From Burkholderia pyrrocinia (GTDB lineage: Bacteria > Pseudomonadota > Gammaproteobacteria > Burkholderiales > Burkholderiaceae), in assembly GCF_018417535.1 (NCBI RefSeq), contig NZ_CP070979.1, forward strand, positions 186,001-250,000: a stretch of DNA of 64,000 nt, read 5' to 3'. The translations under genes were made by a program, and so were the position numbers. Within the stretch, counting starts at the first letter, position 1. Every line of letters begins with the position of its first letter. Positions 7,659-63,656 of the stretch are shown here, piece by piece. The notes under the pieces were generated by a model. That model was not told the origin of the DNA. It worked only from the letters and a program-made list of their open reading frames with translations, and made no database searches.

Positions 7659-8753
7659 CTACCGCGCGACGACGGATTGCCGGTACGCGACCTTCTCGTA
7701 CGGCTGCACCGTACGCTGGCCGTCGGCGTCGAAGGCGATCGTGCCGGTCACGCCCGTATACGGCTGGCTGGCCGCGAGCGCCGCGCGCACCTTCGCCGGA
7801 TCGGCCGATTGGGCACGATTGATCGCGGCGGCGGACAGCATCGTCGCGTCGTACGCGTAGCTGCCGAACGCCGAGCGCGGCGCCTCGTGGTAGGCGGCGC
7901 GATAGTCGGCCGCGTACGCGGCGGCACTTCCGCCGAGCGCCGCGACCTCCAGGCCGATCTGCCCCTGCGCGATCCGGGCGGGCGTGTCGCTCGTGCACAT
8001 CGTCAGGTAGATCCCGTACCACGGCCGCTGGTTGAGGCGCATCTCGAACGCCTGCCGGTTCAGCGTCGCGGCTTCCTGTCCGTACGCGCTGTACACGTAG
8101 CCGTCGGGTTGCGCGCGCGATGCCTGTTCCAGCTCGCGCCGGTAGGTCGACTGGCCCTCGGTGTAGAGCACCGTCGAGACGATCGTGCCGCCGAGCGCCT
8201 CGAAGCGCTTCCTGAACTCGGCCGCGATGCCCTGGCCATAGCCGTTGTTCGGCGCGATCAGCGCGACGCGCCGCAGTTTGCGGTCGTACACATCCTGCGC
8301 GGCGAAGCGTGCGGACAGGTCGTCGAGCCCGATTGCGCTGAACGAGCCCGCGCCGATCTTGCGGACCTGCTGGCTCGATGAACCGATGTTGATGTGCACG
8401 TCGCCCTGACGCACGAGGAACTGCCCGACCGGAATCGTCACCGACGAAGAGAATTCGCCGAGCACGAGCGGCACGCGCTCGACCGTCGTCAGCTTGCGCG
8501 CGGCGTCGAGCGCCGTGTTCGCCGTGCCGCCCGAATCCTCGATTCGCACCTGCAGCTTCTGCCCGAGCACGCCGCCTTGCGCGTTGATCTTCGCGACCGC
8601 CAGCTCGATCCCGCGCCGCTGGTCCTCGCCGATCGACGCGCTTGCGCCTGTCAGCGGCAACACGGCGCCGACGCTGACGTCGGCGCGCGCAGGGAATGTC
8701 GCCCACGCGCCGAGCGCGACGCAGATCCCGAGACTCCAGCAACCCAGCTTCAT
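7659..8753 (-). CDS. Periplasmic binding protein of the branched-chain amino acid-type ABC transporter
   Basis: This 364-residue protein has a Sec signal peptide (hydrophobic stretch to about residue 24, then PARADVSVGAVLPLTG). The mature N-terminus matches LivK/AmiC-type type I periplasmic binding proteins, with GEDQRRGIELAVAKINAQGG and DSGGTANTALDAARKL. An AGGAG ribosome site lies a few bases before the ATG. It is the first gene of the liv operon and is divergent from the RidA-dadA-racemase set, which suggests that the ligand is a substrate for those enzymes. The ligand cannot be read from the sequence. Confidence 0.9.
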   Translation of the reverse strand: MKLGCWSLGICVALGAWATFPARADVSVGAVLPLTGASASIGEDQRRGIELAVAKINAQGGVLGQKLQVRIEDSGGTANTALDAARKLTTVERVPLVLGEFSSSVTIPVGQFLVRQGDVHINIGSSSQQVRKIGAGSFSAIGLDDLSARFAAQDVYDRKLRRVALIAPNNGYGQGIAAEFRKRFEALGGTIVSTVLYTEGQSTYRRELEQASRAQPDGYVYSAYGQEAATLNRQAFEMRLNQRPWYGIYLTMCTSDTPARIAQGQIGLEVAALGGSAAAYAADYRAAYHEAPRSAFGSYAYDATMLSAAAINRAQSADPAKVRAALAASQPYTGVTGTIAFDADGQRTVQPYEKVAYRQSVVAR

Positions 8754-9060
8754 TTTTGTTCTCCTGAATGCGTGTTGAATTGCGTTTGAAATACAGAAGT
8801 GTCGACAGAATCACAGAACAAAAATCGCTGGCAAACATTTTTTGAAGGGATGTTGCGACGTCCGTAAAATGCACCGATTTGTGCAAGGAAATGCCTTGTT
8901 TTAAAGCGTTAAATGCACAAACTCCGCGACGGTAAACACCAGCGTCGGGCATATGCGCCAGATTGGCGCGGCATCGAATATTTTTGAAAAAAGTGTATAC
9001 AGTTATGAATATGGATGCTTAGAATTCAACCCACTCGATACGGAAAACGGAGGCGGTGCG
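8754..9060. promoter_or_regulatory. Divergent promoter region with TGTATACA palindrome
   Basis: This 307-base A/T-richer gap separates the liv operon from the RidA/dadA operon and must hold both promoters. At 8994-9001 lies the perfect palindrome TGTATACA. It follows a TTGAAA (8984-8989) that could be a -35 box for the plus-strand operon. FCD-type GntR repressors commonly bind short palindromes of this kind, and such a regulator is encoded at 11534-12238. The sequence shows the palindrome; its use as an operator is inference. Confidence 0.4.
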
Positions 9061-9408
9061 ATGGAGATCAAGCGATATGGCGCAGGCGAACGGATGAGCC
9101 AGCTCGTGGTCGCTGGCGGCTTCGCGTTCATTGCCGGACAGGTTGCCGACGACACCGCACTCGACGTCGCCGGCCAGACCCGCGAGATCCTCGACAAGAT
9201 CGACCGGCTGCTCGACGGCGCGGGGCTCGACAAGCGCCGGATCGTGTCCGCGAACATCTGGCTTGCCGATCACCGGAGCTTTGCCGACATGAACCGGGTC
9301 TGGGACGCATGGGTGCCGCAGGGCGACGCGCCGGCGCGCGCATGCGTGGAGTCGGCGCTCGCGTTTCCCGAGTACACGGTTGAAATCGCGGCGATCGCCG
9401 CGTTCTAG
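9061..9408 (+). CDS. RidA/YjgF family enamine/imine deaminase
   Basis: The 115-residue protein is of RidA family length and carries the substrate-carboxylate-binding arginine in DAPARACVESALAF near residue 98. RidA proteins hydrolyse reactive enamine/imine intermediates released by amino-acid oxidases and PLP enzymes. Placement directly before a D-amino-acid dehydrogenase fits a role in converting its imine product to the keto acid. The start at 9061 is chosen over an upstream in-frame ATG because GGAGG precedes it by about 6 bases and family N-termini align there. Confidence 0.9.
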   Translation: MEIKRYGAGERMSQLVVAGGFAFIAGQVADDTALDVAGQTREILDKIDRLLDGAGLDKRRIVSANIWLADHRSFADMNRVWDAWVPQGDAPARACVESALAFPEYTVEIAAIAAF

Positions 9409-9420
9409 CGGAGGCGAGCG

Positions 9421-10665
9421 ATGAGGACGGTCGTGCTCGGAGGCGGCATCGTCGGTGTGACGACCGCATACTTTCTCGCGAAGGCGGGCGACGAGGTGGT
9501 AGTAGTCGACCGGCGCGACGGCGTCGCGCTCGAGACGAGCTTCGCGAACGCGGGGCTGATCGCGCCGGGGCATTCCTATACGTGGGCGTCGCCGCGCGCG
9601 CCGAAGATCCTGCTCAAGTCGCTGTTCTCGGACGGGCAGGCGCTGCGCCTCAAGTGGTCGCCGGACTGGCGGATGTGGGCGTGGTGCCGGCAGTTCCTGC
9701 AGAACTGCACGGCGGAGCGGTCGCGCCGGAACACGTCGATCAAGGTGCGGCTGTGCCGCTACGCGCAGCAGCAGCTTCAGTTCGCGACCCGCGACGAGGG
9801 GCTCGCGTACGACCGGATCAGCGGCGGGCTGCTGTACCTGTACCGGGATTCCGCGTCGTTCGAGCGCGGCATCGCGAACATGCGGATCCTGTCCGACAAC
9901 GGCTTGCCGCTCGAGACGCTTGATCCGCGCGCGGTGATCGAGCGCGAGCCCGCGCTCGCCGGCGCGGCGGGCGAGATCGCGGGCGCGATCTACTGCCCGT
10001 CCGACGAGAGCGGCGACGCGCATCTGTTTACCCGCGCGCTCGCCGAGCGCTGCCGCGCGCTCGGCGTCGAGTTCCGCTTCGGCGCGACGATCGACGGCGT
10101 GCGCGCGGACGCGGACGCGGTGGACTACGTGCAGACGTCGCAGGGCCGCGTGAGCGGCGACCGCTACGTGCTCGCGCTCGGCGCGTACTCGCCGTTCGTC
10201 GCGCGCCGGCTCGGCTACCGGTTGCCGATCTATCCGGTGAAAGGCTACTCGGTCACGCTGCCGATCGACACGCGCCACGAGCCGCCGACGCTCGGCGGCG
10301 TCGAGGAAAACCAACTCGTCGCGTGGGCACGGTTCGGCGAGCGGCTGCGCCTGACCGCGACGGCCGAATTCGGCGGCTACGACACGACCCACACGCCCGC
10401 GGACTTCGCGCACATGCTGGCGACCGCGAAGGCGCTGTTTCCGAACGGCGCCGACTATACGAAACCGTCGTACTGGGCCGGGTTGCGGCCGATGACGCCG
10501 GAAGGCACGCCGATCATCGGCGCGACCCGGCATCGCAACCTGTTTCTCAATACCGGGCACGGCCACATGGGCTGGACGATGTCGTGCGGTACCGCGAAGA
10601 TCGTCGCCGACCTGATCCACGGCCGGCACCCCGACATCGACATTACCGGGATGACACTCCAGTGA
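9421..10665 (+). CDS. D-amino-acid dehydrogenase-like FAD oxidoreductase
   Basis: This 414-residue flavoprotein of the DadA/DAO family oxidatively deaminates D-amino acids to 2-oxo acids, normally at the inner-membrane face with electrons passing to quinone. The FAD-binding motif is VLGGGIVGVTTAYFLAKAG at the N-terminus. ETSFANAGLIAPGH and, at the C-terminus, RPMTPEGTPIIGATRHRNLFLNTGHGHMGWT are typical DadA segments. It lies 12 bases after ridA and overlaps the racemase-like gene by four bases. The substrate is not certain; an imino acid or a cyclic amino acid is possible. Confidence 0.88.
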   Translation: MRTVVLGGGIVGVTTAYFLAKAGDEVVVVDRRDGVALETSFANAGLIAPGHSYTWASPRAPKILLKSLFSDGQALRLKWSPDWRMWAWCRQFLQNCTAERSRRNTSIKVRLCRYAQQQLQFATRDEGLAYDRISGGLLYLYRDSASFERGIANMRILSDNGLPLETLDPRAVIEREPALAGAAGEIAGAIYCPSDESGDAHLFTRALAERCRALGVEFRFGATIDGVRADADAVDYVQTSQGRVSGDRYVLALGAYSPFVARRLGYRLPIYPVKGYSVTLPIDTRHEPPTLGGVEENQLVAWARFGERLRLTATAEFGGYDTTHTPADFAHMLATAKALFPNGADYTKPSYWAGLRPMTPEGTPIIGATRHRNLFLNTGHGHMGWTMSCGTAKIVADLIHGRHPDIDITGMTLQ

Positions 10666-11453
10666 GCGAACTTCTTTCGACCCCCGTGCAGCACGGTGCC
10701 GGTTCGTACGCGCGCTTCGGCTTTTCGCTCGATGCGGGCATCGCGCGCCGCGCGGCGATCGGGCTCGTCGTGCTCGCGACCGACCATACGATCGAATACG
10801 AATGGCGGCGCGTGCTCGCGCTCGACGGCGTCGCGTTCTACGAGAGCCGGATCGCGAACTCCGCCGACATCACCGCGGAGACGCTCGCGCAGATGGACGG
10901 CGGGATCGCGGCGGCCGTCGAGCTGATCCGCCCCGGCGAGCGGCTCGACGTGGTTGCGTTCGGCTGCACGTCCGCGTCGATGGTGCTCGGCGAGGAGCGC
11001 GTGTTCGAGCGGATCCGCGAGGCGCGGCCGGGCGTCGCGTGCACGACGCCGATCACCGCGGCGCGGGTCGCGCTCGGCGCGCTGGGCGCGCGCGGCGTCG
11101 CGCTTCTCACGCCGTACCAGCGCTCGATCAACGAAGCGATGGCGGCCTACCTGCGCGCGCGCGGCGTCGACGTCGTGCGCGCGGGCTCGTTCGAGCACCG
11201 CGACGACAACGAGGTGGCGCGGATCGACCGCGCATCGATCGAGCGCGCGGTGCTCGCGCTGGCCGCCGATCCGGCGGTGGACGCGGTGTTCGTGTCGTGC
11301 ACGAGCCTTCGGCTCGTCGACGCGCTCACGGAGATCGAGGCGCGCGCCGGCAAGCCGGTGTTGTCGAGCAATCACGCGCTCGCGTGGCATGCGCTGCGGC
11401 TCGCCGGCGTCGACGATCCGGTGCCGGGCTTCGGGCGCCTGCTGATGCGATGA
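10662..11453 (+). CDS. Asp/Glu racemase superfamily protein, maleate isomerase/arylmalonate decarboxylase-like
   Basis: The 263-residue protein starts at a GTG that overlaps the dadA stop (GTGA). It has the two-cysteine active-site arrangement of the Asp/Glu racemase superfamily: Cys102 in AFGCTSASMV and Cys213 in VSCTSLRLVD. This pair of motifs is closest in style to maleate cis-trans isomerases and arylmalonate decarboxylases rather than glutamate racemase MurI. Linked to a D-amino-acid dehydrogenase and RidA, it may racemise or isomerise the substrate taken up by the divergent ABC importer. The reaction itself is not readable. Confidence 0.75.
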   Translation: MSELLSTPVQHGAGSYARFGFSLDAGIARRAAIGLVVLATDHTIEYEWRRVLALDGVAFYESRIANSADITAETLAQMDGGIAAAVELIRPGERLDVVAFGCTSASMVLGEERVFERIREARPGVACTTPITAARVALGALGARGVALLTPYQRSINEAMAAYLRARGVDVVRAGSFEHRDDNEVARIDRASIERAVLALAADPAVDAVFVSCTSLRLVDALTEIEARAGKPVLSSNHALAWHALRLAGVDDPVPGFGRLLMR

Positions 11454-56691: not shown

Positions 56692-57787
<1,096 letters not shown>

Positions 57788-58478: not shown

Positions 58479-58609
58479 CGGATACCCGACACACGCAGCC
58501 GGCGCGCGGCGACGACCGACTTCACAGACCCGTCGCACGGTTCGTCCCTGCAGCGGTCCTGCCGAAATTTCCGGCAAGGCCGTCGCGCATCCATTTCTCG
58601 GAGAACACC

Positions 58610-58714
58610 ATGCGATATCCATTGCAGCACGCCGACCAAGGCGCCTCGGCGCTGCGTCCATCCGCACCCGAACCGCACATACCGGCGCCGCGGGCAGACA
58701 TCGAGGAGGTGTGA
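58610..58714 (+). CDS. Possible 34-residue small ORF at the head of the reb locus
   Basis: This frame begins ATG at 58610 with GGAGAAC six or seven bases before it and ends with TGA at 58712-58714, four bases before the next ATG at 58718. The predicted peptide is proline- and alanine-rich with an acidic end (ADIEEV) and no hydrophobic helix. Tight spacing suggests translation coupling to the larger gene. No homology is recognised. Confidence 0.4.
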   Translation: MRYPLQHADQGASALRPSAPEPHIPAPRADIEEV

Positions 58715-58717
58715 GCC

Positions 58718-59368
58718 ATGAGCAACGAAGCACTCGACCCGCTGCTGCGGCAGTTCGCAGAGAAGCGATTGGGACGGCCCCTCGAGCCGGGCGAAGAACA
58801 GGCGCTGCTGGAGCGGCTGCCGGGCAGGCACGGGAACCCGCCGGCGCCGGGCGCCGGCACGGCCACGCAGGCGAGCGCCGCGAACCCGCCATTGCCGCGG
58901 TTGAAAACCCGGCAGGAGGCGCGCGAGCAGGTCAAGCATTTTTTGCAGCTCAACCAGCAGAAGGCGTACGAGAAGATGCGCGGCATCCTGCAGACGATCG
59001 ACACGCAGAACGAGACGACCCTCGGCATGTTGGCGTCGGAACAGCAGAAAGTGTCCGGCGTGCTCGACGCGCACGAGCCGCCGGGCGACGCGCAGGCATC
59101 CGGCGTGGCCGACATCCAGGACAGCACCCGCCAGGCGCTGGCGCTGATCGGCGAACAGCTGACGGGCCTCATCCGGCAGGAAATCGAAGCATGCTTCCGG
59201 CAATACGTCGATTCGCTCGCCGATCGGCTCGCCGTACGGCTCGACGCGATGGACGACCGGCTGCAAAGCGTCGGCGCCGGTCCGACCGAACGGTCCGAAC
59301 CGACCGCGCCGGGTGCTGCCGCCACCGCCGCCGTTCACGATACCGCCGGCCCAGCGTCCATGGAGTAG
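58718..59368 (+). CDS. Reb-locus helical protein, unrecognised family
   Basis: The 216-residue soluble protein has AGGAGG eight bases before its ATG. Residues 1-35 look like a short helical repeat (LLRQFAEKRLGRPLEPGEEQALLERL), 36-60 are a Gly/Pro/Ala linker, and 60-180 are amphipathic helices with coiled-coil-like heptads (REQVKHFLQLNQQKAYEKMRGILQTIDTQN, and RQEIEACFRQYVDSLADRL). The end is a disordered Ala/Thr/Pro tail. I know no name for it. It sits 94 bases before the first RebB gene and may help assemble or regulate the R body. Confidence 0.6.
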   Translation: MSNEALDPLLRQFAEKRLGRPLEPGEEQALLERLPGRHGNPPAPGAGTATQASAANPPLPRLKTRQEAREQVKHFLQLNQQKAYEKMRGILQTIDTQNETTLGMLASEQQKVSGVLDAHEPPGDAQASGVADIQDSTRQALALIGEQLTGLIRQEIEACFRQYVDSLADRLAVRLDAMDDRLQSVGAGPTERSEPTAPGAAATAAVHDTAGPASME

Positions 59369-59462
59369 CACGCGGGGCATGCGGCTGAAGTCAAGCAGCT
59401 GAACGCGAAACCGGCGAGCCCCGATGTGCGATCTCTCAACTACGTGAATCAAGGAGCAAAAA

Positions 59463-59795
59463 ATGGGTGATAAGTGCCAAGTGTGCCAGGTCAATCCTGC
59501 GATTACCGATGCCGTCACGCAGGTCAACGTCAAGGTGGTCGCCGAGGCGCCGGCAATGGCGATGGGCTCGCTGTACCAGGCCCAGAGCCATTCGCTCAGC
59601 ATCCTGTTCGAGAACGCGGTGCAGCAGCAGTCGCAGGCCGCGATCCAGTCGCAGACGTCGACGAACGTGGGGACGATGCAGCTCTACACGATCGGGCCGG
59701 AAAGCGCGGGTGCGGCCGCCACGGAAATCGGCTCGAACGGGATCATCTCCCTGCTGGCCGACGTGATCGCGATCGGCAAGGCGGTGACCCACTAA
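59463..59795 (+). CDS. RebB family R-body protein, copy 1
   Basis: The 110-residue protein has the RebB signature ITDAVTQVNVKVVAEAPAMA with GSLYQAQSHSLSILFENAVQQQ, followed by a conserved TSTNVGTMQLYT strand and a hydrophobic helical end. RebB proteins polymerise into R bodies, coiled ribbons that unroll on pH change in Caedibacter. An N-terminal CxxC motif (KCQVCQVN) precedes the domain and could cross-link subunits. AAGGAG lies six bases before the ATG. It is closely similar to copy 2. Confidence 0.92.
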   Translation: MGDKCQVCQVNPAITDAVTQVNVKVVAEAPAMAMGSLYQAQSHSLSILFENAVQQQSQAAIQSQTSTNVGTMQLYTIGPESAGAAATEIGSNGIISLLADVIAIGKAVTH

Positions 59796-59980
59796 GGGGT
59801 CAACGCCGTGGTCGAGCGGCGGCGCAAGCGGCACGAGCCGCCCATGCCGCCGCCGTGCCGCGAATCCGCAGCACGGCCGCCGGCGCCTGAACAGCGGTGC
59901 CGCGCGGTGTTCCGGAGCAACCGACAGAACGGGCAGAGCCGATTCGATGCGGCGCCCGTTCGCAAACCAGGAGAAATACG

Positions 59981-60367
59981 ATGGCAAATGACGCAAACGC
60001 GAACGCCGACGACCTGAGGATCCCGAACGACCCGAAGGACCCCTGCAACTGCAAGACGTGCGCGGTCAATGCCGCGATCACCGACGCGGTCACGCAGACC
60101 AACGTCAAGGTGGTGGGCGAAGCGCCCGCAATGGCGACGGGATCGCTGTACCAGGCCCAGAGCCATTCGCTCAGCGTGCTGTTCGAGAACGCCGTGCAGC
60201 AGCAGTCGCAGGCCGCGGTCCAGCTGCCGACCTCGACGAACGTGGGCACGATGCAGCTCTACACGCTCGGGCCGGCGAGCGCCGGCGCCGCCGCGACGGA
60301 AATCGGCTCGAACGGTGTGCTTTCCGTGCTGGCTGACGTGCTCGCGCTCGGCAAGGCGCTCGTCTGA
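59981..60367 (+). CDS. RebB family R-body protein, copy 2
   Basis: The 128-residue protein is a longer form of copy 1, with an added polar N-terminus (MANDANANADDLRIPNDPKD) leading to a CxCxxC motif (CNCKTC) directly before the RebB domain AAITDAVTQTNVKVVGEAPAM. From there to the end, about four fifths of positions equal copy 1, so the two are recent duplicates. GCAAACCAGGAG at 59962-59973 provides the ribosome site. It lies 186 bases after copy 1, with the gap lacking recognisable genes. Confidence 0.92.
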   Translation: MANDANANADDLRIPNDPKDPCNCKTCAVNAAITDAVTQTNVKVVGEAPAMATGSLYQAQSHSLSVLFENAVQQQSQAAVQLPTSTNVGTMQLYTLGPASAGAAATEIGSNGVLSVLADVLALGKALV

Positions 60368-60556
60368 CGCGTAACCCGGCGTCGACGCCGGGCGGTGGCC
60401 TCGATCCAGGTGGCTTCCGCCCGGCGCCCGACGTCGTGTCGACGCCCGCGACGGCGAGCGAGCGCGCCGCATCGACGGCGCCGCGTGTCGCCGACCGATC
60501 CACTCATGCTTTCGCCGTGACTGCGCCGCAGCGGCGAGCAAACCAGGAGTAACGAC

Positions 60557-60880
60557 ATGACGGAACAGGTTTCCGCCGCGATTACCGATGCAGTCACGCA
60601 AGCCAACGTCAAGGTGGTGGGCGAAGCGCCCGCCGTGGCCTTGGGCACGCTCATGCAGTCGAACAGCCATGCGTCCGCGATCCTGCTTCACAACGCGGTG
60701 CAAATGCAGGCGAACCAGGCGGCGTCCAACCTCGCCGCCACGACCGTCGGCATCATGCAGCTCTATGCCGGCTCGCCGGTGGCGGCGGCCGCCGCGGCGC
60801 GGTCGGCAAACGACAACTTTGCGTCGCAACTGGCCGCCATCGCGCAGTTGATGAACGCCATCAGCCACTGGCGCGGCTGA
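60557..60880 (+). CDS. RebB family R-body protein, copy 3
   Basis: The 107-residue protein starts MTEQVSAAITDAVTQANVKV and continues VVGEAPAVALGTLMQ, the RebB core, then LLHNAVQMQANQAASNLAATTVGIMQLYAG, closer to canonical single-copy RebB proteins than copies 1 and 2. It has no N-terminal cysteine motif. Its ribosome site repeats the same 12 bases, GCAAACCAGGAG, at 60538-60549, so the 5' element was duplicated with the gene. It converges on the Crp-like gene 79 bases away. Confidence 0.92.
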   Translation: MTEQVSAAITDAVTQANVKVVGEAPAVALGTLMQSNSHASAILLHNAVQMQANQAASNLAATTVGIMQLYAGSPVAAAAAARSANDNFASQLAAIAQLMNAISHWRG

Positions 60881-60959
60881 CCTTCACCGCGCGCCGCGCA
60901 ACCCGGCGCGCGCAACCTTCCCACGCCGCGGCGGCACGGCGCACGTGCTTGCCGGGGCG

Positions 60960-61634
60960 TCAATTGGCGTCGGCGATGTACCGGAGCTGCTCCGGTTTTT
61001 CGATCGTCACGGCGTGCTCGTGAAGCCGGATCAGGCCGTCGCGCTGCATCCTCTGCAGGCTGCTGTTCAGTCGCGGCCGGCTGACGTTGAGCATCGCGGC
61101 GAGGATGCTCTGGTTCTCCGGCAACTGCACCTCGAGATCGTTCCCTTGCATGCGGTTCAGCAGATGGCGCGCGAGCCTTGCCTCGAGCCGGTACAGGCAC
61201 GCCGACTCGACGAAGTCACTCAGCTGGTGGATGTGACGGCACAGCTGCTCGTGGACGCGCTCCATGAAATCCGCGTTGGCCAGCAGCGGCGCGAAATACT
61301 GGCGATGCAGCAGCGAAATGCGGCAGTCGGGGCTCAACTGGGCGGTGAAGCTGCGCCGGTGCGCGCGAATCAGCGTGCTTTCGTCGATGAGTTCGCCCGG
61401 CATCGAGTGGCCGAGAATGATTTCGCGTCCGCCGGGTTCGTGCAGCGTCATGTAGACGCGGCCGCGGTGCACGAAGGCGACGAAATCTCCCGGATCGCCC
61501 TTGAAGAACAACAGGCGATTGCCGTGTTCGGGCCAGGGCGTGACATGCCGCTCGATATGAGCCAGCAGGCTTTCCGGGAGATCGGTGAGTATCGGTATGT
61601 TGCGCAGCGTTTGAACGTTAGCAAGGGCAGGCAT
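60960..61634 (-). CDS. Crp/Fnr family transcriptional regulator
   Basis: The 224-residue regulator has an N-terminal cyclic-nucleotide-binding fold (FFKGDPGDFVAFVHRGRVYM, then PGELIDESTLIRAHRRSFTAQ near residue 75) and a C-terminal helix-turn-helix (ENQSILAAMLNVSRPRLNSSLQRMQRDGLIRL, near 175). No N-terminal cysteines for an FNR iron-sulphur cluster are seen, so it is Crp- rather than Fnr-like. It is divergent from a sigma factor and embedded between RebB genes, so it likely controls R-body expression. Confidence 0.88.
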   Translation of the reverse strand: MPALANVQTLRNIPILTDLPESLLAHIERHVTPWPEHGNRLLFFKGDPGDFVAFVHRGRVYMTLHEPGGREIILGHSMPGELIDESTLIRAHRRSFTAQLSPDCRISLLHRQYFAPLLANADFMERVHEQLCRHIHQLSDFVESACLYRLEARLARHLLNRMQGNDLEVQLPENQSILAAMLNVSRPRLNSSLQRMQRDGLIRLHEHAVTIEKPEQLRYIADAN

Positions 61635-62041
61635 GTTTTCCGTGCGAGGTTGTTTGACGATGCGACCACCTAGCGAAAAACGCTGCCTTTGGCACTGCGT
61701 GAAAAATGAACAATGAAGATAGCCAGATAATCGGCAAGCAGTCCGGATATGGCGGCACTTCGGCGGCAAGGACGCTTGGTCGATCGACGCGGATAGCAGC
61801 GTGCCGGCGCGCGAACGCATCGCGGCGGCAGTCGTTCTTTTCCATCGCAATGCCGTTATTCACGCCCGGCGGCGCGCCTGAAACGACGAATAGGGCTATT
61901 CCGGGGGATTAAAATTTCCGTTCATAATAATCAAGAAAATTTACCGAAACCGATTATCTTGATAACGGTGTTACGCGGGTAACAGCGCCGTTCGCGGCAT
62001 CGAATCGATTCTGTGTTTTCCATAAAAAAGGAAGGCACGGG
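61635..62041. promoter_or_regulatory. A/T-rich divergent control region in the reb locus
   Basis: This 407-base gap between the Crp-like gene (minus) and the sigma factor (plus) is markedly A/T-rich near 61905-61965. It carries ATCAAGA (61930-61936) facing TCTTGAT (61957-61963), and a perfect 5-4-5 palindrome GTTAC-GCGG-GTAAC at 61970-61983. These are candidate sites for the Crp-like regulator. A 68-codon frame across it (61706-61912) has atypical composition and is probably not coding. Confidence 0.5.
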
Positions 62042-62599
62042 ATGACAACCTCGAACCAGCACGCTGCCCCGACGCCTGAGTCACCGGCGCAGCAGCTCGA
62101 TCGCACGTGGCGGGAAATGCAGGGGAAGTTACGGCGCCGCGCGCGCCTGTTGTGCAAGGGCGATCTTTACCGTGCCGACGAACTGCTCTCCGATACCGCA
62201 CTCAAGGTCCACATTTACCTGCAGCGCTCGCCCGAGCGCGTGCAGAACCTGGCCGGCTTTCTCTTTCTGGCGCTGAACCACGCGTTCCTCGATGGCGCGC
62301 GCCGCCGTCTCCGCGAAAGCGGCAAGCTCGAATTCGACCCGGACTGGGACGACGATCACACCGTCGAGCTGGCTGGCCACGCGCCGTCGGTGGAGCAGCA
62401 ACTGCTGCTCCGGCAGTTGCTGCTGCGTCTCGAGCAGGCGCTGTCCACGCTCCCGCCGCAGCAGCAGATGCTGTTCACGCTGAAGTTCGAGGAGGACCGG
62501 CCCTATCTGCACATCGCGGCGACGCTCGGGATCAACGAGCCGCTTGCCAGAAAGCGCGTCGAGCTGCTGCGCAAGAAGTTGCGCGAGGAACTCGCCTGA
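62042..62599 (+). CDS. ECF-like RNA polymerase sigma factor
   Basis: The 185-residue protein has a region 2 (YRADELLSDTALKVHIYLQR then VQNLAGFLFLALNHAFLDGARRR) and a region 4 helix-turn-helix (LSTLPPQQQMLFTLKFEEDRPYLHIAATLGINEPLARKRVELLRKKL). It is short, as expected for ECF-type sigma factors, and no anti-sigma gene is adjacent. Its placement just before RebB copy 4 and its divergence from the Crp-like gene suggest it drives reb promoters. It begins at 62042 after AAGGAAGG. Confidence 0.85.
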   Translation: MTTSNQHAAPTPESPAQQLDRTWREMQGKLRRRARLLCKGDLYRADELLSDTALKVHIYLQRSPERVQNLAGFLFLALNHAFLDGARRRLRESGKLEFDPDWDDDHTVELAGHAPSVEQQLLLRQLLLRLEQALSTLPPQQQMLFTLKFEEDRPYLHIAATLGINEPLARKRVELLRKKLREELA

Positions 62600-62712
62600 G
62601 CGCGTTCACGAACGCGGGCACGCAGCGTTCCTAACGGCATGCGCGGCGTCGATGGCCTGCCGGCCCGCCGTTCCTTCAATCGCATGCCGGAGCCGAGATC
62701 CGAGGAGGCCTC

Positions 62713-63006
62713 GTGGCAGACAAAGTCAATGAGCAGGTTACCGACGCGCTGACGCAGACCAATGTCAACGTCGTCGCGGGATCCCCGGCCCAGGCGCTGG
62801 GCACGCTTTACCAGATGTTCAGCCAGGCCGTCGGCATCTCGGCGCAGAACATGACGCAGCAGCAGGCGGCGCTGAACCAGATTTCGAACGCCGTCGTGTC
62901 GAAGGCGGTGGCCATGATCCTGTCCGTCGAAGCGTCGCCGAAGGGGGCATCGGGCGGCGCGGCGCATGCCCCGACGGCCGGGCCGCAGACGGGTTCCACG
63001 CATTAG
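62713..63006 (+). CDS. RebB family R-body protein, copy 4
   Basis: The 97-residue protein starts with GTG at 62713 after GAGGAGG. It carries the RebB domain (VNEQVTDALTQTNVNVVAGS then PAQALGTLYQMFSQAVGISAQNM), more diverged than copies 1-3, then a Gly/Ala tail. No cysteines are present. It follows the sigma factor by 113 bases and precedes a helical accessory gene by 29 bases. It may serve as a minor component or chaperone of the ribbon. Confidence 0.88.
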   Translation: MADKVNEQVTDALTQTNVNVVAGSPAQALGTLYQMFSQAVGISAQNMTQQQAALNQISNAVVSKAVAMILSVEASPKGASGGAAHAPTAGPQTGSTH

Positions 63007-63035
63007 GACGAGCTGACTCTCGGGATACCTGAACC

Positions 63036-63656
63036 ATGAACATGAAAGGCCTTTTGGGCGGACGCGGCGACGGCGCGCCGCAGACGCCGCGCGATGCCGC
63101 AGACGCCGCAGACGCCGCAGCCGAAGCAACGACACCGGCCGCTGTCGCGCCGCACACCGCGGCGCCGAAGGCCGGCGCGCGCGCGTGGCCGGTCAACCGG
63201 CTGCGCAGGCTCACCGATGCGCTGAAGGCACCGGACCAGATCGCGGGTGCGGCCGGGCCCGGCGGCTCGGCGCTGCAGACCGTGCAGGCGATCAACGCGG
63301 AAGCCGCGTCCTATGCGACGACGCAGATCGCCGTCGGCCCGAACATGATGATCACGCAGGCGGGCGGCCTGGTCGCGCAGGCGGCGGCCAACTACTTCGA
63401 GGCGTCGACGTCGCTGGCGATCGCGGGCAAGAGCGTGCTGATGAAGGATCTGGCGCAGAAGACCATCGACGAGAACGTGCCCGGGATGGCGATGGATGCG
63501 ATGGGCCTGCTGTTGACGGACCTGTTCGTCGCGACCGCGGCGATCGTCGCGGGTGCCGCGGAGGCGATCGAAGGGGAGGCCGCGAGCATCGCGCTCGACA
63601 AGATCGACGAGAGCTTGCAGAAGTATCAGGCGCTGCTGGACAAGAAGGGCGCGTAG
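63036..63656 (+). CDS. Reb-locus accessory protein, unrecognised family
   Basis: The 206-residue protein has an Ala/Thr/Pro-rich N-terminal 50 residues with a DAADAADAA repeat, a basic patch (WPVNRLRRLTDALK) and a C-terminal half with a repeat-like helical part resembling RebB in style (ALQTVQAINAEAASYATTQIAV, then AQAAANYFEASTSLAI) and hydrophobic stretches (MAMDAMGLLLTDLFVATAAIVAGAAEAI). I recognise no named family. It follows RebB copy 4 by 29 bases and is almost surely cotranscribed. Confidence 0.65.
   Translation: MNMKGLLGGRGDGAPQTPRDAADAADAAAEATTPAAVAPHTAAPKAGARAWPVNRLRRLTDALKAPDQIAGAAGPGGSALQTVQAINAEAASYATTQIAVGPNMMITQAGGLVAQAAANYFEASTSLAIAGKSVLMKDLAQKTIDENVPGMAMDAMGLLLTDLFVATAAIVAGAAEAIEGEAASIALDKIDESLQKYQALLDKKGA

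What the first reader, a model, noticed from the sequence alone, without database searches (positions are those of the whole stretch)
58610..63656. Complete-looking reb (R-body) locus with four RebB genes and its own regulators
Four RebB-domain proteins (59463, 59981, 60557, 62713), a Crp-like regulator, an ECF-like sigma factor and two unrecognised accessory proteins lie together. RebB proteins build R bodies, known as toxin-delivery ribbons in Caedibacter and present in many free-living Proteobacteria with unknown roles. A Burkholderia locus with this many paralogues and a dedicated sigma/Crp pair is a strong candidate for an under-described, contact- or stress-induced structure.
Basis: partly seen in the sequence, partly recalled or inferred. 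Interest (0 to 1): 0.85.

Follow-up and report, generated by a model that had tools for sequence, protein, structure and literature searches.

The report
Self-amplifying R-body locus in Burkholderia
This is a real gene cluster for R-bodies (coiled protein ribbons that spring open), of a layout known since 2013; what looks new is a DNA-encoded on-switch in which two regulators appear to switch each other on, and a neighbouring gene position that holds different enzyme-like genes in different bacteria and may carry the missing R-body cargo.

Summary
Confirmed: all four proteins pass Pfam RebB (72-85 bits, cut-off 24). The locus is a "Group 2" reb cluster (Raymann 2013), also known from P. aeruginosa PA14: three structural-type Rebs, a RebD-type Reb, a RapA-position protein, another accessory protein, a Crp-like regulator and an ECF sigma factor. 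The cluster type is not new.

New to me: (1) Wiring. A Crp-geometry palindrome upstream of the sigma gene occurs once in the 8.5-Mb genome. Of 65 sigma-reb loci it is in 47 of 49 with crp and 0 of 16 without. A box TTCACR-N15/16-CGTY precedes the RebD-type gene (53/56), structural genes (60/63) and crp (44/49), but sigma in 1/65. This predicts mutual activation, a plausible basis for the stochastic expression reported in PA14. (2) The position after the RapA-like gene holds unrelated genes, several enzyme-like, in different genera; here, just past the window, a protein with a weak CheD/CNF-like fold match. (3) RebB1/RebB2 carry N-terminal cysteine pairs (39 of 72 Rebs of B. cepacia-type loci, 0 of 213 others), against a 2026 generalisation. 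Binding, bistability and cargo delivery are inference.

The parts
58521..58546 (+). Predicted sigma promoter P1, TTCACA-N16-CGTC, upstream of small ORF, orf216 and rebB1
   Evidence: coordinates; pattern in 18 of 18 Burkholderia loci
58610..58714 (+). 34-codon ORF with ribosome-binding-like GGAGAAC, stop 4 bases before the orf216 ATG
   Evidence: MRYPLQ-type 34-36 aa protein with the same stop position in 15 of 18 Burkholderia loci
58718..59368 (+). orf216: conserved accessory protein (216 aa); one of Raymann's two Group 2 proteins by size and context
   Evidence: no Pfam match over cut-off, no NCBIfam match; profile hits in 49 loci, one ORF each, some loci being two copies of one contig
59334..59358 (+). 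Predicted sigma promoter P2 inside the 3' end of orf216, TTCACG-N15-CGTC, upstream of rebB1
   Evidence: 18 of 18 Burkholderia loci
59463..59795 (+). rebB1, structural-type Reb (110 aa)
   Evidence: PF11747 85.2 bits
59475..59486 (+). Codons of the N-terminal C-x-V-C pair of RebB1
   Evidence: cysteine pair in 18 of 18 Burkholderia loci
59981..60367 (+). rebB2, structural-type Reb (128 aa)
   Evidence: PF11747 79.4 bits
60044..60061 (+). Codons of the N-terminal CxCxxC of RebB2
   Evidence: at least two N-terminal cysteines in 18 of 18 loci listed
60557..60880 (+). rebB3, structural-type Reb (107 aa)
   Evidence: PF11747 75.4 bits
60960..61634 (-). Crp/FNR-family regulator (224 aa from the probable start; ORF open to 61850); RcgA-like by position
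   Evidence: PF00027 45.5 and PF13545 46 bits
61679..61703 (-). Predicted sigma promoter P3 of the crp gene, TTCACG-N15-CGTT
   Evidence: coordinates; 17 of 18 Burkholderia loci; 44 of 49 crp-bearing loci of all groups
61969..61984 (+). Palindrome TGTTACGCGGGTAACA (TGTTA-N6-TAACA), predicted binding site of the Crp-like regulator, 73 bp upstream of the sigma ATG
62042..62599 (+). ECF-type sigma factor (185 aa); FecI2-like by position
   Evidence: TIGR02937 55.5 bits, cut-off 42.9
62605..62629 (+). Predicted sigma promoter P4, TTCACG-N15-CGTT, upstream of the RebD-type gene
   Evidence: 18 of 18 Burkholderia loci
62713..63006 (+). rebB4 = RebD-type short Reb (97 aa, GTG start)
   Evidence: PF11747 72.4 bits; groups with the short Rebs of other genera, 11 rows, 100/100
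63036..63656 (+). orf206: RapA-position protein (206 aa)
   Evidence: relatives next to the short Reb gene in other genera; Reb homology not significant by hhalign

Best explanation
The locus makes R-bodies from RebB1-3, with RebD-type RebB4 and the RapA-position protein orf206 as assembly or associated proteins, under a two-gene mutual-activation switch. Step 1: the Crp-like protein binds TGTTA-N6-TAACA and turns on the sigma gene. Step 2: the sigma factor, with no anti-sigma gene seen in the locus, reads TTCAC(A/G)-N15/16-CGT(C/T) and transcribes crp, rebB4-orf206 (perhaps through to orf148) and orf216-rebB1-2-3. Mutual activation should give rare ON cells that load an R-body. Co-produced proteins encoded in a variable position after orf206 (here the candidate amidohydrolase orf148) are the likeliest cargo or helpers. 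Shown by computation: gene content, elements, their conservation and their co-occurrence with the regulators. Inferred: binding, activation, bistability, R-body assembly, cargo role.
For: Gene families. Palindrome once in the genome (the tool's reversed control also gave 1 per strand, so one site is about what chance allows: the weight lies on its conservation, not its rarity). Among 65 sigma-reb loci, palindrome with at most 2 mismatches in 47 of 49 crp-bearing and 0 of 16 crp-less loci; the next best of the 120 arrangements of the half-site reaches 14 loci. The contrast holds inside Pseudomonas: 13 with both, 8 with neither. Sigma motif (TTCACA, CGTY): 108 hits at spacer 15 and 24 at spacer 16 in 70 loci, 0-4 at each other spacer from 10 to 20; 89 permuted -35 hexamers average 1.9, maximum 23. 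Placement of the relaxed box: RebD-type 53/56, structural 60/63, crp 44/49, sigma 1/65, outside pieces 10/792. PA14 (Wang 2021): deletion of rcgA or fecI2 abrogates PrebP1 activity, 0.26% of cells express it in liquid culture, and striations may indicate heritability; RapA is in SDS-insoluble fractions and overlaps RebP1.
Against: All wiring is from sequence; no binding or expression data for Burkholderia. The Fisher p of 2.4e-13 ignores shared ancestry. 16 of 65 loci lack crp and the palindrome, so the loop is not universal; two crp-bearing loci (L188, L191) have only a 3-mismatch site. I equate Crp-like and sigma with RcgA and FecI2, and orf206 with RapA, by position and description, not by comparing PA14 sequences. 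orf148 has no sigma motif at its own start, lies 161-507 bp beyond orf206 in the 14 loci measured, and its fold match is on a low-confidence model. A rebB1 deletion in P. protegens CHA0 did not change insecticidal activity (passage) and PA14 rebP1P2 deletion had no cost in biofilms. Mutual activation allows but does not prove bistability. Assembly was not tested.
Confidence: 0.66

Rival explanations
1. An ordinary Group 2 reb locus in a linear cascade: an outside signal sensed by the Crp-like protein turns on sigma, which turns on reb; the motif upstream of crp is only minor autoregulation and there is no bistability.
For: Crp-family proteins often sense ligands (recalled); [quoted passage not shown] protegens CHA0 reb genes were up on wheat roots (passage), so environment matters in relatives.
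Against: crp carries the sigma box in 44 of 49 loci, sigma in 1 of 65, which makes a loop rather than a line; PA14 expression is stochastic.
Confidence: 0.22
2. The variable genes after orf206 have nothing to do with R-bodies; the boundary of a mobile cluster simply collects passengers.
For: The cluster sits at a variable spot: in 8 of 13 stretches fetched from genomes without the sigma gene, TrpRS and the downstream oxygenase gene lie about 0.9-5 kb apart with no reb or orf148. orf148 has no own sigma motif and is missing in 4 of 23 genomes with the close sigma gene.
Against: In the rows printed for Dyella, Pseudomonas, the lipase-like and the patatin genes, the gene lies 1-102 bp after the RapA-like gene on the same strand; non-core genes with their own sigma motif include a lipase-like one in L059 and an endonuclease-type one in L070 and L190; 19 of 21 genomes with orf148 also have this sigma gene.
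Confidence: 0.4
3. A relic: genes are intact but R-bodies are no longer made in this lineage.
For: Patchy distribution (25 of 65 Burkholderia genomes with the sigma gene at E<=1e-20); one decayed relative L044 without sigma; a 27-aa orf216 remnant in L230.
Against: All eight ORFs are open here; promoters kept in 17-18 of 18 Burkholderia loci while the bases between the two boxes vary; cysteine pairs conserved.
Confidence: 0.06

Closest known systems
Pseudomonas aeruginosa PA14 reb cluster (rcgA, fecI2, rebD, rapA, rebP1, rebP2; Wang 2021, PMC8322103)
   Same: Same inventory by description: transcription factor, sigma, RebD-type Reb, RapA, structural Rebs. Both regulators are needed for PrebP1 activity in PA14.
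   Different: Here the blocks are permuted (orf216-rebB1-2-3, crp reversed, sigma-rebB4-orf206), with three structural-type Rebs, two of them bearing N-terminal cysteine pairs, and orf148; PA14 has the non-conserved PA14_27650/27660/27675. The words feedback, bistab-, motif, autoregul- and Crp do not occur in the main text of the PA14 paper.
Raymann 2013 'Group 2' reb synteny (HP2.1-HP2.4; PMC3583457)
   Same: Two ~205-220 aa domainless proteins, sigma factor and cyclic-nucleotide-type regulator beside reb genes.
   Different: In the section read, no promoters, wiring or variable gene position are described; it leaves the toxin open and allows non-homologous toxins.
Dorr 2026 reb survey, groups 2, 3 and S4 (PMC13430693)
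   Same: rebB1-3 fit their group 2, rebB4 their group 3 (RebD), orf206 their S4 (RapA), by description only.
   Different: They state that where a Reb has a cysteine no second one is present and rule out disulfides; RebB1/RebB2 here break that. They set aside non-Reb neighbours.
Caedibacter taeniospiralis rebABCD
   Same: RebB-domain proteins; RebD-type short Reb.
   Different: One plasmid operon with rebC, as recounted in a passage; no Caedibacter sequence was compared here.
CheD / NTAN1 / CNF / YlmD cysteine-hydrolase fold group (for orf148)

Membership tests
RebB / R-body proteins (PF11747) | Match over the curated cut-off | tested here: met
   4 of 4 proteins, 72.4-85.2 bits against 24
RebB / R-body proteins (PF11747) | Assembly into coiled, extendable ribbons | not testable with these tools
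   needs expression and electron microscopy; no PDB chain matched by sequence at E<=1
Raymann Group 2 reb synteny | Reb genes with two ~205-220 aa domainless proteins, sigma factor and cNMP-type regulator | tested here: met
   orf216, orf206, sigma and Crp-like among the Rebs; description
RebD subfamily | Groups with short RebD-type proteins, apart from structural Rebs | tested here: met
   11-row clade 100/100; few columns, and no named RebD in the tree, so the RebD label rests on size and position
RapA (PA14_27680) | Sequence homology to PA14 RapA | not tested
   equated by position after the short Reb gene and by descriptions
ECF sigma factor | sigma70-ECF model over cut-off | tested here: met
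   TIGR02937 55.5 bits, cut-off 42.9
FecI-type sigma with anti-sigma partner | Adjacent anti-sigma (FecR-like) gene | tested here: not met
   none of the eight main ORFs of the locus matches one; distal partners not searched
Crp/FNR regulators | cNMP-binding domain plus Crp-type HTH | tested here: met
   PF00027 and PF13545 over cut-off; ligand unknown
CheD/CNF-like amidohydrolases (orf148) | Shared fold | tested here: inconclusive
   weak but consistent fold matches on a low-confidence model
CheD/CNF-like amidohydrolases (orf148) | Catalytic Cys and His in the fold's positions | tested here: inconclusive
   invariant Cys35 and His53; superposition on the catalytic residues of known members not examined; the motif parallel is recalled

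The most novel reading that the evidence does not exclude
Group 2 R-body loci are modular launchers: a Crp-sigma mutual-activation switch arms rare cells that build a ribbon and load interchangeable proteins encoded after rapA or behind a sigma promoter (CheD/CNF-like protein in the B. cepacia group, papain-like protein in Pseudomonas, CdtB-like nuclease in Paraburkholderia, patatin, lipase-like proteins, lysozyme). These would be the long-missing, non-homologous R-body toxins; in the B. cepacia group the ribbon would in addition be held or released by cysteine chemistry.
Probability: 0.33. Interest if true: 0.88.

Novelty: new variant of a known kind. Interest (0 to 1): 0.62.

Why it matters
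Two open questions become testable: why only a few cells make R-bodies (a two-gene mutual activation with named DNA sites in several genera), and what R-bodies deliver (a defined gene position and a sigma signature from which to list candidates). The cysteine pairs contradict a 2026 statement that disulfides play no part in R-body stability and give a simple biochemical test.

Tried and rejected
Phage origin: no match of RebB1 in 50,697 phage records, although one PHROG of unknown function matched it (E 2e-14). Mobility: 15 plasmid records matched, all typed non-mobilizable.

orf206 as a diverged Reb: looks alike by eye at the NSQI..AV..TN stretch, but hhalign gave probability 0.5, E 0.11; not claimed.

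Genome-wide sigma regulon: the loose pattern gave 40 sites in the own genome against 11 in the reversed control and the strict one 9 sites in 12 genomes against 11 control sites; too noisy to name unlinked target genes.

Papain-like reading of the Pseudomonas 212-217 aa protein: invariant His48 and Cys149 in 9 aligned sequences, but model pLDDT 55.8 and only weak fold hits (CtaG ranks 1-4, LytE rank 5, best E 0.74); Pfam C92 only at E 0.29, below cut-off (L052 copy). Kept as a suggestion. The Dyella 715-aa, the L077 164-aa and the lipase-like L059 proteins have no Pfam or NCBIfam match; 'lipase-like', 'papain-like' and the carbon-nitrogen hydrolase look of L187 and L191 rest on motifs that I recalled.

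CdtB-like reading of the L070 protein: PDB matches at E 4.3e-6 to 8e-4, Pfam Exo_endo_phos over cut-off, but the NCBIfam CdtB model scores 27 bits against a cut-off of 189: a relative of the fold family, not shown to be a CdtB. The L190 copy was not searched.

A phylum-wide search for the sigma gene found it in 1 of 398 genomes, the own one, so loci were gathered by family (35 of 398) and genus (14 of 348).

Dropped rows: 15 named loci replaced by longer copies of the same contigs. L035-L048 were left out of the 65-locus counts; nine are copies of named loci, but L037, L040, L041 and L046 are further intact loci (all four with crp and the palindrome at 0-1 mismatches) and L044 is the decayed one. 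5 of 70 sigma loci were left out of the 65 because sigma scored under 200 bits or no reb was labelled. 2 of the 65 had no called orf206. In one search, before ORFs running off contig ends were included, L094 counted as site without crp; its crp is cut by the contig end. In one search several singleton rows (L193, L194, L203, L215 and others) are doubtful ORF calls and are not counted as enzymes; L215 carries the Pseudomonas-type gene in another frame, and in L197 the longer oxygenase ORF was picked although orf148 is there.


Full report
WHAT IS THERE. The window end holds a complete-looking reb cluster. All four small proteins pass the Pfam RebB cut-off by a wide margin, and they are the only RebB matches in the three-contig, 8.5-Mb genome. 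Between and around them lie a Crp/FNR-family gene on the minus strand, an ECF-type sigma gene, and two proteins of 216 and 206 aa without a family match over cut-off. The 206-aa gene follows RebB4 directly. A 34-codon ORF starts at 58610 and ends 4 bases before orf216; its MRYPLQ-type product is recognisable in 15 of 18 Burkholderia loci.

HOW COMMON. 20 of 61 genomes searched (own included) have RebB; the close sigma gene is in 23 of 65 Burkholderia genomes, plus two distant ones. A scan of 84,980 species genomes with RebB1 found 97 relatives and kept 80 loci, from Burkholderia, Paraburkholderia, Dyella, Pseudomonas, Chromobacterium, Pseudovibrio and others. Profile labelling shows the recurrent set (crp) - sigma - short Reb - orf206 - (orf216) - structural Rebs in many of them; in Burkholderia the blocks are permuted. 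In 8 of 13 stretches fetched from genomes without the sigma gene, the flanking TrpRS and oxygenase genes are only about 0.9-5 kb apart, without reb or orf148 (about 6.8 kb here); four others showed TrpRS alone, one (L229) orf148 alone; L230 keeps a 27-aa orf216 remnant. This looks like a cassette gained or lost at one place.

KNOWN OR NOT. Raymann et al. 2013 (PMC3583457; outline, one section and passages read) defined this set as Group 2 synteny. Wang et al. 2021 (PMC8322103; outline, four sections and passages read) showed in PA14 that a transcription factor (RcgA) and a sigma factor (FecI2) are both needed for rebP1 expression, that 0.26% of cells express it, and that RapA is in R-body fractions. 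Dorr et al. 2026 (PMC13430693; outline, three sections - one in part - and passages) report a large clade of Burkholderia Group 2 clusters. So the cluster type is known. Two further papers were seen in passages only (PMC3377617; PMC7784888).

THE SWITCH. Alignment of 18 Burkholderia loci showed a conserved TGTTAC-N4-GTAACA between crp and sigma. TGTTA-N6-TAACA has the geometry of Crp-family sites (recalled). It occurs once in the genome, as the reversed control does per strand. In 65 sigma-reb loci of seven groups it is found upstream of sigma in 47 of 49 that carry crp and in 0 of 16 that do not; the two exceptions have three mismatches. The place of the crp gene varies: in several Paraburkholderia loci it is at the other end of the cluster, yet the site stays at sigma. 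Within Pseudomonas 13 loci have both and 8 have neither. The Fisher value (2.4e-13) overstates independence.

Reading the sigma-to-short-Reb gaps of different genera side by side gave TTCACA-N15-CGT(T/C). In 70 sigma loci (1.03 Mb) it occurs 108 times at spacer 15 and 24 times at spacer 16, against 0-4 at each other spacer from 10 to 20; permuted -35 boxes average 1.9, maximum 23. Of the 108, 70 precede a Reb gene, 19 crp, 1 sigma and 18 something else; 7 of the 18 lie inside reb or crp ORFs, where the start was probably called too early. Counted by gene with the relaxed box (TTCACR, spacer 15 or 16): RebD-type 53/56, structural 60/63, crp 44/49, sigma 1/65, outside pieces 10/792. In this window the sites are 58521, 59334, 61703 (minus) and 62605, kept in 17 or 18 of 18 Burkholderia loci; rebB2 and rebB3 have none (0 of 18). 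Hence the inferred circuit: Crp-like protein -> sigma -> crp and the reb operons. Two genes that each need the other are a standard basis for two-state expression; that this explains the PA14 observation is inference.

A VARIABLE POSITION. In 63 of 65 loci an orf206 was called. The next gene as picked by script is orf216 in 16, orf148 in 12 Burkholderia loci, a 212-217 aa papain-like protein in 10 Pseudomonas loci, a 715-aa protein in 4 Dyella loci, a small unknown protein in 3 alphaproteobacterial loci, a GHSRG-type lipase-like protein in 2 Burkholderia loci, the flanking oxygenase in 2, another unknown in 2, and 12 singletons, one of them a patatin (L188; 70.4 bits), others doubtful. In L079 a phage-type lysozyme (186.7 bits) sits there, although picked orf216. 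Elsewhere in the clusters, with their own sigma motif: an endonuclease/exonuclease/phosphatase protein in L070 and L190 - for the L070 copy the closest PDB sequences are CdtB (E 4.3e-6, residues 3-221), while the NCBIfam CdtB model stays far below its cut-off - unknown proteins in L186/L189, and in L192 a small protein followed by a PHA depolymerase (381.5 bits, cut-off 280). I read this as a cargo or helper position; passenger genes at a cluster edge remain a serious rival.

CYSTEINES. 39 of 72 Rebs from B. cepacia-type loci have two or more cysteines before the Reb domain, 0 of 213 others, with starts called by script. RebB1 has CxVC in 18 of 18 and RebB2 a CxxC or CxCxxC in 18 of 18 listed. 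Dorr et al. state that where a Reb has a cysteine no second one is present, and exclude disulfides. Function untested.

NOT IN PRINT? The searches that ran and the passages read showed no promoter motif, feedback loop or variable cargo position for R-body clusters; most listed papers were seen as titles and abstract starts only. The library holds open-licence papers, so this is weak evidence of absence.

VERDICT. Observation right; interpretation partly right; a known cluster type with a newly inferred switch, a variable gene position and cysteine-bearing Rebs.

Noticed in passing
L049, L050, L051 (G006, G034, G025): A second kind of reb locus in three Burkholderia genomes: six or seven Reb-type ORFs in a row, without this sigma, crp, orf206 or orf216 labelled; possibly the published Group 1 layout. 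G025 has both kinds.
   Followed up: partly
L044 (G025): Decayed Group 2 locus: orf216, RebB1, orf206-type and orf148 ORFs kept, a weak Reb remnant, sigma missing, crp only as a fragment.
   Followed up: partly
L230 about 10588-10668: 27-aa orf216 remnant (78% identity) in a genome without the sigma gene, between TrpRS and the oxygenase gene: perhaps a loss scar.
   Followed up: no
L187 9016 (minus) and 7841-9127: A relative of the sigma gene without any reb labelled nearby, with the same promoter motif in front of a 428-aa ORF that looks like a carbon-nitrogen hydrolase by eye (no Pfam or NCBIfam match).
   Followed up: partly
L188, L191, L192, L079: Extended reb clusters with a PHA depolymerase (over cut-off in L192 and L079, by eye in L188 and L191), a phasin-like protein (weak, below cut-off) and in L188 and L079 a phage-type lysozyme; a link of R-bodies with PHA granules or lysis is unexplained.
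   Followed up: partly
own genome C1:117644, C1:485660, C1:1386031, C2:808500: A dispersed 28-bp sequence with inverted-repeat symmetry (TTCACAAACCAGTTTCACTGGTCGTCCT, three identical copies and one variant) matched the loose sigma pattern; probably a repeat element, not promoters.
   Followed up: no
window 56692-57765 (minus): Tryptophanyl-tRNA synthetase-like gene on the 1.3-Mb third contig, next to the reb insertion place (named by eye); found in 50 of 65 Burkholderia genomes at E<=1e-150.
   Followed up: no
L052 5328-5969, L203 7312-7953: The Pseudomonas-type papain-like gene also occurs in two small-genome Burkholderia (G033, G030); in L052 it lies between sigma and the short Reb gene, a different place in the cluster.
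   Followed up: partly
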